Origin: Linanthus parryae
Taxonomy: Eukaryota > Streptophyta > Magnoliopsida > Ericales > Polemoniaceae
Assembly (NCBI GenBank): GCA_023055425.1
Contig: JALGPY010000002.1
Location: forward strand, 157,677,345 to 157,741,344
DNA: 64,000 nucleotides
Direction: 5' to 3'
Shown here: positions 52,252 to 52,881 of the stretch, in pieces
Numbering within the stretch: position 1 is the stretch's first letter
Layout of the letters: each line of letters opens with the position of its first letter
The notes under the pieces: generated by a model
What the model saw: only the letters and a program-made list of their open reading frames with translations
What the model was told of the DNA's origin: nothing
Database searches by the model: none
Made by a program: the position numbers and the translations under genes

Positions 52252-52881
52252 TTAATCTTCGTCCTTATCGCTTTCATCCATCTCTTCCTCTTCATTGGAG
52301 TCATACTCGTGCTCTTCATCTTCACTCGGATCTTCTTCACTTTCTTCATACTCCATGGGATCTTCTTCAATCTCGGGGTATTCATCGACATCTTCCATTG
52401 GATCTTCTTCAACTTCCTCATCGTCACTAGAGTCTATAATAATAACTTCTTTTTCATCACTAGAGCTTATGTAGATCACGTCTTCTTCATCACTGGACTC
52501 TATCTCAATAACTGTATAACTTTGCCACTTAAGATAAGTCTCCATCAACAACTTGCATATAAAATCTGCACTTACCTTCCATTAACCTTGGCAACGATAA
52601 TCCCTATCATTCAGACGATTCATCCTGCCCATGATGTTACTATACTTCGTAATAATTTCCCCAAACATGGGTTTCATAGGTAATGCCTTCACCATACAGT
52701 AAGCCTGAAAAGCTAGATTTCTATACAGAGGAAAATTTAAGGCTTGGAATCTATCTTCACAATATTGAACCACGCGGTCAAGAAAATCTGGAAAATCTTC
52801 ACCTTCATCCCAATCTGTCACAACAGGGTGCTTCTCTACTGGCAACACAGGCTTCCTTGCTGTATGCTTAGTTCTAGCCAT
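52252..52881 (-). pseudogene. Leader ORF of element G: histone H3 tail-like start, triple SUMO-interacting-like repeat, acidic tail
   Basis: One frame of 209 codons upstream of gag, on the element's sense strand, with a single TAA at codon 100 (52582-52584). The ATG at 52881 gives MARTKHTARKP; histone H3 begins MARTKQTARKS, so nine of the first ten residues agree, including K4 and K9. The rest of the first half is not histone: an acidic link (TDWDEGEDFPDFLDR) and a short globular region (VVQYCEDRFQALNFPLYR). After the stop codon, three exact 11-residue repeats start at residues 124, 135 and 146: VIEIESSDEED, VIYISSSDEKE, VIIIDSSDDEE. Each is a hydrophobic VI-x-I core followed by serines and acids, the form of a SUMO-interacting motif. 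Residues 157-209 are almost wholly acidic. The reading frame persisting through the stop suggests a recently intact gene. Function unproven. Confidence 0.75.

What the first reader, a model, noticed from the sequence alone, without database searches (positions are those of the whole stretch)
52252..52881. Retrotransposon leader ORF with a histone H3 tail mimic and three tandem SUMO-interacting-like repeats
Seen: the ORF upstream of gag in chromovirus G starts MARTKHTARK, identical to the histone H3 N-terminus except at residue 5, then departs from histone. It later has three 11-residue tandem repeats (52512-52480, 52479-52447, 52446-52414) with cores VIEI, VIYI and VIII, each followed by SSDEE-type residues, and then an acidic tail. 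Known: H3K4/K9 context is read and written by chromatin factors; hydrophobic VI-x-I/V cores flanked by serines and acids bind SUMO; plant transposon silencing includes SUMO-pathway proteins (MOM1, PIAL2). Inference: an element-encoded protein that docks on H3-tail readers or enzymes and on sumoylated silencing factors, either as a decoy or to target chromatin. I know of no description of this combination.
Basis: partly seen in the sequence, partly recalled or inferred. Interest (0 to 1): 0.86.

Follow-up and report, generated by a model that had tools for sequence, protein, structure and literature searches.

The report
Retrotransposon helper protein resembling histone tail
A plant jumping gene present in hundreds of copies carries an extra gene, kept by natural selection, whose protein begins like the tail of histone H3 and carries repeats predicted to bind SUMO, so it likely helps the element deal with the host's chromatin or silencing machinery.

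Summary
The host genome (1.51 Gb) holds 358 exact copies of the 10-residue start; 147 of the 150 scored matches to a 209-codon relative are stop-free. Among 51 copies, variants shared by three or more are mostly synonymous (24 N:54 S), singletons not (177:53; P = 6e-13). Four subfamilies keep one to three SIM-like repeats. In 25 frames T3, K4 and K9 are invariant, but R2 is V or I in 17 and position 5 is H only in subfamily A. That H is the plant CENH3 hallmark; the host's CENH3 starts MARTKH. So this is a selected 5' accessory gene of a chromovirus (a known kind) with a motif combination my searches did not find described. SUMO docking is the likeliest mechanism (inferred). True H3/CENH3 tail mimicry is possible but weakened, since the histone-like positions are not all conserved. 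Conserved splice-like signals suggest a spliced subgenomic mRNA.

The parts
52252..52881 (-). 5' accessory ORF (209 codons + stop in intact subfamily A relatives); this copy is interrupted at codon 100
52852..52878 (-). ARTKHTARK, histone H3/CENH3-like residues 1-9 (after the initiator Met)
52582..52584 (-). in-frame stop codon (codon 100), in this copy only among 51
52480..52512 (-). SIM-like repeat 1 (VIEIESSDEED)
52447..52479 (-). SIM-like repeat 2 (VIYISSSDEKE)
52414..52446 (-). SIM-like repeat 3 (VIIIDSSDDEE)
52255..52413 (-). acidic tail (residues 157-209) with repeated EEDPM/S; 34 of the last 54 residues of the ORF are D or E
52882..52895 (-). 3' splice-site-like pyrimidine tract ending TAG directly before the ATG; the only YYYYYYYYYYNYAG|ATG in the window
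54271..54278 (-). AG|GTAAGT 5' splice-site-like signal in the 5' LTR; also in the 3' LTR (35304-35311); in 28 of 30 sampled copies
53297..55634 (-). 5' LTR of the element
53279..53294 (-). primer-binding-site-like TGGTGTCAGAGTCGGC (initiator-Met type, recalled)
50219..50989 (-). gag open part (PF03732, E 9.3e-18); the frame is broken further upstream
46587..49988 (-). pol in broken pieces: RT (PF00078), integrase (PF17921; PF00665 below its cut-off), chromodomain-like C-terminus (PF00385, E 7.2e-5, below its cut-off)
45047..46336 (-). 3' LTR, first part
34332..35346 (-). 3' LTR, second part (split off by a nested element at 35347-45046)
55635..55639 (.). target-site duplication AAGAC (other copy 34327-34331)

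Best explanation
The leader ORF is a conserved 5' accessory gene of a chromovirus family (probably Tekay-type) that is present in hundreds of copies in this genome and under purifying selection in the copies compared, and its product likely works in the nucleus by docking on SUMO-modified chromatin proteins through a tandem array of predicted SUMO-interacting motifs. Shown: an intact 209-codon frame in many copies; purifying selection; four subfamilies with 1, 2 or 3 repeats of the type V-I-x-I-x-S-S-D-D-E-E; an acidic tail; an N-terminus that in the window's subfamily reads as an H3 tail with the CENH3-type His5; conserved splice-like signals that would put the ATG at the start of the second exon of a spliced mRNA. 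Inferred: that the repeats bind SUMO (several SIMs together favour SUMO chains in known readers, PMC12751080, passage); that the basic N-terminus, once Met is removed, serves as a chromatin address, either as a histone-tail-like ligand or as part of a nuclear import signal; and that the purpose is to blunt silencing or to steer integration. Of these purposes I think dampening of silencing somewhat likelier.
For: Copies: 358 exact MARTKHTARK starts, control 0; 481 places match a non-coding leader anchor with up to 2 mismatches, control 0; 147 of 150 scored matches have no stop (the best 150 of 6925 candidates, so biased to good ones). Selection: 51 copies, all on contigs C1 and C2 but the window's: singletons 177 N:53 S (ratio per site 0.76), shared by 2 or more 70:74 (0.22), shared by 3 or more 24:54 (0.10), Fisher P = 6e-13. 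Subfamily A against B (one pair): dN/dS 0.12 overall, 0.08 in repeats 2+3, 0.09 in the tail, with non-coding flanks 22-26% different. Within the window's copy the three repeats differ from each other only synonymously at six core codons (over the three pairs Sd 8 of 12 sites, Nd 0 of 42). Repeat number 1-3 across subfamilies. Place: an LTR-end 28-mer upstream in 21 of 31 copies, gag downstream in 3 of 4 sampled copies. Splice-like signals: acceptor in 30 of 30 A copies and 17 of 19 B/C/D contexts, donor in 28 of 30.
Against: No binding, localisation or RNA evidence. Repeat 1 is not SIM-like in B-D (NPIEAKE-type residues follow its hydrophobic core; L147 excepted), and between subfamilies repeats 1 and 2 are only weakly constrained (pN/pS 0.64 and 0.57), so only the last repeat is constant. 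SIM-like strings are easily met in acidic disordered tails (general knowledge). No known domain: Pfam's best is E 0.0069 for an unrelated family in 2 of 10 members, the PDB's best is E 0.79. The single-sequence AlphaFold model of residues 1-99 is poor (pLDDT 52). gag was not found downstream of the one D copy looked at. In the anchor sample 2 of 39 aligned copies have lost the acceptor AG.
Confidence: 0.5

Rival explanations
1. The N-terminal nine residues are a working histone-tail mimic: with Met removed, ARTKHTARK occupies the H3- or CENH3-tail pocket of a host reader, writer, demethylase or chaperone, much as the SNAG peptide occupies LSD1, while the SIM array adds SUMO docking.
For: 8 of 9 identity to H3, 5e-7 expected per window. 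T3, K4 and K9 invariant in 25 of 25 frames, R8 in 24, A7 in 22. Between subfamilies A and B the codons of A1, T3, K4, T6, A7 and K9 differ only synonymously. His5 is the hallmark of plant CENH3, the host's own included. 54 of 70 anchor-selected copies keep all ten residues exactly.
Against: R2, a main contact for readers of the H3 N-terminus (recalled), is V or I in 17 of 25 frames. His5 is in subfamily A only; A7 is P in both D frames. Codons 11-24 are at least as conserved (pN/pS 0.16 against 0.25 for 1-10). T or S at position 7 recurs in 7 of the 40 fetched anchor copies.
Confidence: 0.25
2. The N-terminus is simply a basic nuclear-import or nucleic-acid-binding segment; its likeness to H3 is convergence on a short basic peptide, and only the SIM array and acidic tail matter for chromatin.
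For: T3, K4, R8, K9 and R10 are among the most constant residues (25, 25, 24, 25 and 23 of 25) and the conserved block runs on through LPVEKHPVV. The sunflower Tekay 5' aORF has a predicted nuclear localisation signal; no histone likeness is mentioned in that paper ('histone' 0 occurrences; PMC11728184).
Against: A chance match to H3 is very unlikely a priori; A1 and T6 are also kept in 21 of 25 frames each, which a bare basic signal would not need.
Confidence: 0.4
3. The ORF is a captured fragment of a host H3 or CENH3 gene.
For: Identity of the start; LTR elements do capture genes (PMC13317346, passages). The host CENH3 exon 1 shares MARTKH.
Against: Likeness ends at residue 9; the first 30 bases match the host's 25 H3 starts at only 21-24 of 30; the leader plus ORF has no blastn match (E 1e-3) to these 25 H3 loci or the CENH3 locus, but matches 20 of 20 loci of the other subfamilies; rice CENH3 exon 1 runs at least to codon 23, so an exon capture should show more.
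Confidence: 0.04
4. The ORF product is a ligand for the element's own integrase chromodomain (probably group II, partner unknown), through a TARK peptide like the H3K9 site, and so regulates where or when integration happens.
For: The element has a chromodomain-like C-terminus; the interacting factor of plant group II chromodomains had not been found (PMC3350952, passages); T6-A7-R8-K9 is kept in A and most B/C frames. In sunflower, Tekay groups without a 5' aORF insert near centromeres, the group with it does not (PMC11728184).
Against: Group II chromodomains lack cage aromatics, so H3K9-like binding is unlikely; the D frames have TPRK/APRK. No interaction evidence.
Confidence: 0.08
5. The resemblances are chance in a decaying, functionless frame.
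For: This copy is broken (stop at codon 100; gag and pol broken).
Against: Shared-variant N/S ratio 0.10 and 147 of 150 best matches stop-free.
Confidence: 0.01

Closest known systems
5' additional ORFs (5' aORFs) of Tekay/Del chromoviruses, e.g. sunflower Tekay 13-2 (PMC11728184; passages)
   Same: Same place (5' side of gag), conserved across hundreds of copies (500 of 523 there), no known domain, predicted nuclear there
   Different: Sunflower's protein is 402 aa and proline-rich, with no histone or SUMO mentioned in the paper; here 198-220 aa, acidic, with a SIM-like array and an H3/CENH3-like start
Plant centromeric histone CENH3 N-terminal tail (MARTKH motif; PMC9842635, passage)
   Same: First six residues identical to the host's own CENH3
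   Different: No histone fold; ungapped likeness to CENH3 ends after MARTKH
SNAG domain, the H3-tail mimic that binds LSD1 (PMC12612597, passages)
   Same: Short N-terminal peptide that resembles the H3 tail (would be a functional analogue)
   Different: Different sequence (recalled), animal transcription factors; no binding shown here
Multi-SIM SUMO readers such as STUbLs (review PMC12751080, passages)
   Same: Several hydrophobic cores with Ser/acid flanks in tandem
   Different: No RING or other effector domain found; encoded by a retrotransposon; repeat number differs by subfamily
Anti-silencing aORF proteins of VANDAL DNA transposons (PMC11728184, passage; the name VANC is recalled)
   Same: Accessory transposon protein, possible anti-silencing role
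   Different: VANDALs are DNA transposons; sequence likeness was not tested

Membership tests
Tekay-type chromovirus (Ty3/gypsy) | LTRs, PBS, 5-bp target-site duplication | tested here: met
   LTRs 53297-55634 and 34332-35346+45047-46336; PBS-like site; AAGAC on both sides
Tekay-type chromovirus (Ty3/gypsy) | gag, RT and integrase with C-terminal chromodomain | tested here: met
   PF03732, PF00078, PF17921 above cut-off; PF00665 (28.7 of 32.6 bits) and chromodomain PF00385 (E 7.2e-5, 23.1 of 25.1 bits) below Pfam's cut-offs
Tekay-type chromovirus (Ty3/gypsy) | RT places in the Tekay clade of a tree | not tested
5' aORF of chromoviruses | ORF in sense between 5' LTR and gag | tested here: met
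   Window; LTR-end 28-mer upstream in 21 of 31 copies; gag downstream in 3 of 4 sampled copies
5' aORF of chromoviruses | Present and conserved in most copies of the family | tested here: met
   54 of 70 leader-anchored copies have the exact 10-residue start; 15 of the other 16 have a recognisable one; selection
H3-tail mimic | A-R-T-K at a free N-terminus (Met-Ala start) | tested here: inconclusive
   Sequence met in subfamilies A and D, not in B/C where residue 2 is V or I (17 of 25 frames); Met removal not tested
H3-tail mimic | T-A-R-K around the K9 equivalent | tested here: inconclusive
   Met in A and most B/C frames; both D frames have P for A7
H3-tail mimic | Binding by a histone-tail reader or enzyme | not testable with these tools
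   needs a peptide assay
CENH3 | MARTKH start | tested here: met
   (subfamily A only)
CENH3 | Histone fold beginning PGTVAL | tested here: not met
   No histone family among Pfam matches; no PGTVAL in the aligned frames
SUMO-interacting motif protein | Hydrophobic core with Ser/acidic flank | tested here: met
   Three in the window, 0.23 expected; 1-3 pattern matches in each of 25 relatives, some degenerate
SUMO-interacting motif protein | Binds SUMO | not testable with these tools
   needs a binding assay

The most novel reading that the evidence does not exclude
A retrotransposon family encodes a dedicated chromatin decoy: a spliced accessory protein whose first nine residues imitate the H3/CENH3 tail and whose expandable SIM array grips SUMO chains, so that the element presents the silencing or centromere machinery with a false, sumoylation-seeking histone tail.
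Probability: 0.22. Interest if true: 0.87.

Novelty: new variant of a known kind. Interest (0 to 1): 0.62.

Why it matters
5' accessory ORFs of plant chromoviruses have been described in several species and their functions are unknown (PMC11728184, passages). This one carries two recognisable short motifs, so its function can be tested with peptides, and its many copies and four subfamilies form a natural mutagenesis set: repeat number 1-3, R or V at residue 2, H or T at residue 5. If the motifs work, an LTR retrotransposon would encode both a histone-tail-like ligand and a SUMO reader, linking element biology to the SUMO pathway in plant silencing.

Tried and rejected
Homologues outside the genome: two protein searches of the ORF (250 candidates, none at E 1e-3; residues 1-99, 4 candidates, none at E 10) found nothing. 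The same database gave only 1 hit for gag, from quinoa, so plants seem thinly covered and absence says little. Viral contigs: RT, ORF, gag and gag-alignment scans and two DNA patterns, 0 relatives. Pfam and PDB: no family; the 20-residue start weakly hit PDB 7d69 histone H3, which also reads MARTKHTARK (E 1.3; I recall this as Giardia). AlphaFold of residues 1-99 alone: poor, so no fold search was made. An internal intron that would remove the stop: 41 in-frame GT-AG pairs exist, so a neat one is no evidence; the stop is better explained as private decay. Capture of an H3 or CENH3 exon: rejected.

Papers were seen as search listings or passages only, except PMC7264820, of which I read part 1 of 3. 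Searches whose listings showed no description of a retrotransposon ORF with a histone-tail-like start or SIM array; capped lists of open-access papers, so not proof of absence.

Full report
What is in the window. On the minus strand a Ty3/gypsy element spans 34332-55634: 5' LTR 53297-55634, 3' LTR 45047-46336 plus 34332-35346, split by a nested element at 35347-45046, with the target-site duplication AAGAC on both sides. The LTRs differ by K2P 0.039 over 2295 aligned sites, about 1.5 million years at 1.3e-8 per site and year (rate recalled). gag, RT, integrase and a chromodomain-like C-terminus are recognisable but broken. Between the LTR and gag lies the frame of the finding. It does start MARTKHTARK and has the three repeats at the stated places, but codon 100 is a stop.

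Chance. Of 2357 ATGs in the window one matches ARTKQTARK at 8 of 9 and the next best at 4; the expected number at 8 or more is 5e-7. As an outside yardstick, 257 Gb of prokaryote contigs hold 15 hits of the degenerate DNA pattern; 10 read MARTKxTARK, of which 6 continue as histone H3, 1 begins so and then departs, and 3 do not continue as histone. These figures test likeness to one named motif, and H3 was picked after the fact. The strict SIM-like string occurs 3 times in six frames, all here, against a mean of 0.23 in 60 Markov controls. The three repeats are DNA duplicates (22-24 of 33 bases identical) whose six core codons differ only synonymously (over the three pairs Sd 8 of 12 sites, Nd 0 of 42). 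The core was chosen after seeing it; a neutral simulation gives 6 or more conserved columns in 1.7% of stop-free cases.

The family in the host genome. After many busy replies the window's own assembly could be searched: 1.51 Gb, 121 contigs. MARTKHTARK at an ATG has 358 exact copies, with 0 for the reversed control. A protein search with a full-length relative gave 150 scored matches, the best of 6925 candidates; 3 contain a stop. A sample of 51 copies (the window's plus 50 from contigs C1 and C2, chosen by the exact start and so blind for codons 1-10) has 32 frames open for 198 codons or more; the codon-100 stop occurs in the window's copy alone.

Selection. In the 51 copies, variants seen once, probably mostly post-insertion decay, are 177 nonsynonymous to 53 synonymous over codons 11-209 (ratio per site 0.76, 13 stops). 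Variants shared by two or more copies are 70:74 (0.22, 3 stops); by three or more 24:54 (0.10, no stop); by five or more 15:38 (0.09). Singleton against shared-by-three is P = 6e-13. The repeat region alone is 26:12 for singletons against 7:11 for shared-by-two (P = 0.046). Copies are related, so these counts are not fully independent. The source copies evidently kept this protein under strong constraint.

Codons 1-10 without the bias. A non-coding leader anchor some 280 bases upstream has 481 places with up to 2 mismatches (the first 100 are listed, all exact). Of the 44 listed on contig C1, 32 sit beside an exact MARTKHTARK. I fetched the other 12 plus all 26 listed on C35, and two more picked because no exact start was listed beside them, which are left out of the tally. 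Of these 70 anchors (44 + 26), 54 have the exact ten residues, 12 have one or two changes (in one the ATG itself is lost), 3 belong to another subfamily (MAVTKTTARK) and 1 could not be aligned. Changes at position 7 (to T or S) occur in 7 of the 40 fetched copies, so this position drifts.

Subfamilies. A second protein search and 20 fetched copies, grouped by eye, gave four groups. A is the window's: MARTKHTARK and three repeats. B is MAVTKTTARK-type with two repeats. C is MAVTK-type with, mostly, three. D is MARTKT(T/A)PRK with one. Two of the 20 (L142, L144) were left out of the codon comparison because the script found no unbroken frame of the needed length from an ATG. In the 25 frames used (A 6, B/C 17, D 2) T3, K4 and K9 are invariant, R8 is in 24, A7 in 22, A1 and T6 in 21; R2 is in 8 (V or I in 17); position 5 is H in the 6 A frames and T or I elsewhere. 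One A-B pair gives dN/dS 0.12 overall and 0.08 for repeats 2+3 but 0.54 for repeat 1, while flanking non-coding DNA differs by 22-26%; the codons of A1, T3, K4, T6, A7 and K9 differ only synonymously, those of R2 and H5 nonsynonymously (synonymous sites are saturated there). Between subfamilies pN/pS is 0.25 for codons 1-10, 0.16 for 11-24, 0.64, 0.57 and 0.14 for repeats 1 to 3, and 0.21 for the acidic tail (148 pairs, not independent). L147 joins a B-like front to A-like repeats, which suggests recombination.

Histone side. The one departure from H3, His5, is diagnostic of plant CENH3. MARTKH is described as marking the start of CENH3 in all species of one alignment (PMC9842635, passage). 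Of six CENH3 N-termini read in papers five start (M)ARTKH: poplar, maize, Chionographis, sunflower, wheat; the sugar beet peptide reads RVKHTAARK, with K-H one residue earlier. I found the host's own CENH3: exon 1 reads MARTKHVASAKRKRRGRPASN, with a later exon carrying PGTVALREI. A pattern limited to CGN arginine found 25 canonical H3 starts in the host; all read MARTKQTAR, 24 of them MARTKQTARK. So subfamily A has a CENH3-type first half (MARTKH) and an H3-type second half (TARK). Likeness stops at residue 9, and the leader plus ORF shows no blastn match to the 25 H3 loci or the CENH3 locus, while matching 20 of 20 loci of the other subfamilies.

Expression. The ATG directly follows a pyrimidine tract ending in TAG, the only YYYYYYYYYYNYAG|ATG in the window (0.18 expected; 17 of 100 shuffles had one). 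The AG before the ATG is kept in 30 of 30 A copies and 17 of 19 B/C/D contexts, and in 37 of 39 aligned anchor copies. AG|GTAAGT lies in both LTRs and in 28 of 30 A copies; by itself it is not rare (5 in the window, 1.95 expected). Unspliced RNA would have to pass 7 ATGs between the LTR and the ORF. I infer a spliced subgenomic mRNA whose second exon begins with the ORF's ATG; no RNA data were available.

What it is and how it works. Established here: a selected accessory gene in the place known for 5' aORFs of Tekay elements, whose functions are unknown (PMC11728184, passages). Likely: the V-I-x-I-x-SSDDEE array binds SUMO. Variation in repeat number with a fixed last repeat is what a multivalent docking array might show, but it is not proof. 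Open: whether the N-terminus is a histone-tail mimic or a basic nuclear signal. Invariant T3, K4 and K9 speak for the first; loss of R2 in B/C, of A7 in D, and equal conservation of the non-histone codons 11-24 speak for the second. I put tail mimicry at about one in four.

Verdict. Its mechanistic reading is half supported. New variant of a known kind.

Noticed in passing
window 35347-45046: A young LTR element nested in the 3' LTR: its own LTRs (35347-36929, 43464-45046) are 99.94% identical; gag-type ORF of 725 aa at 41206-43383 (PF03732).
   Followed up: partly
window 28097-29335, 20741-21808, 4528-5184 (-): ORFs matching Transposase_32 (PF20167), the family that PMC11728184 relates to Athila ORF1; the last is under the curated cut-off.
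   Followed up: no
window 39360-39830 (+) and 886-1398 (+): ORFs of 156 and 170 aa without Pfam match at E 0.01; the first lies antisense inside the nested element.
   Followed up: no
window 50219-50989 (-): gag has an extra CxxC pair before its zinc knuckle; the only database hit is a quinoa protein (38% identity), which shares the CxxC-x2-NHPGKD stretch.
   Followed up: partly
L154 (host contig C35, about 190434895, -): Host CENH3 gene: exon 1 MARTKHVASAKRKRRGRPASN; later exon with PGTVALREI.
   Followed up: partly
L147: A copy with a B-type N-terminus and A-type SIM repeats, suggesting recombination between subfamilies.
   Followed up: no
L040: Host H3-like gene reading MARTKQTARQS, with K9 replaced by Q.
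   Followed up: no
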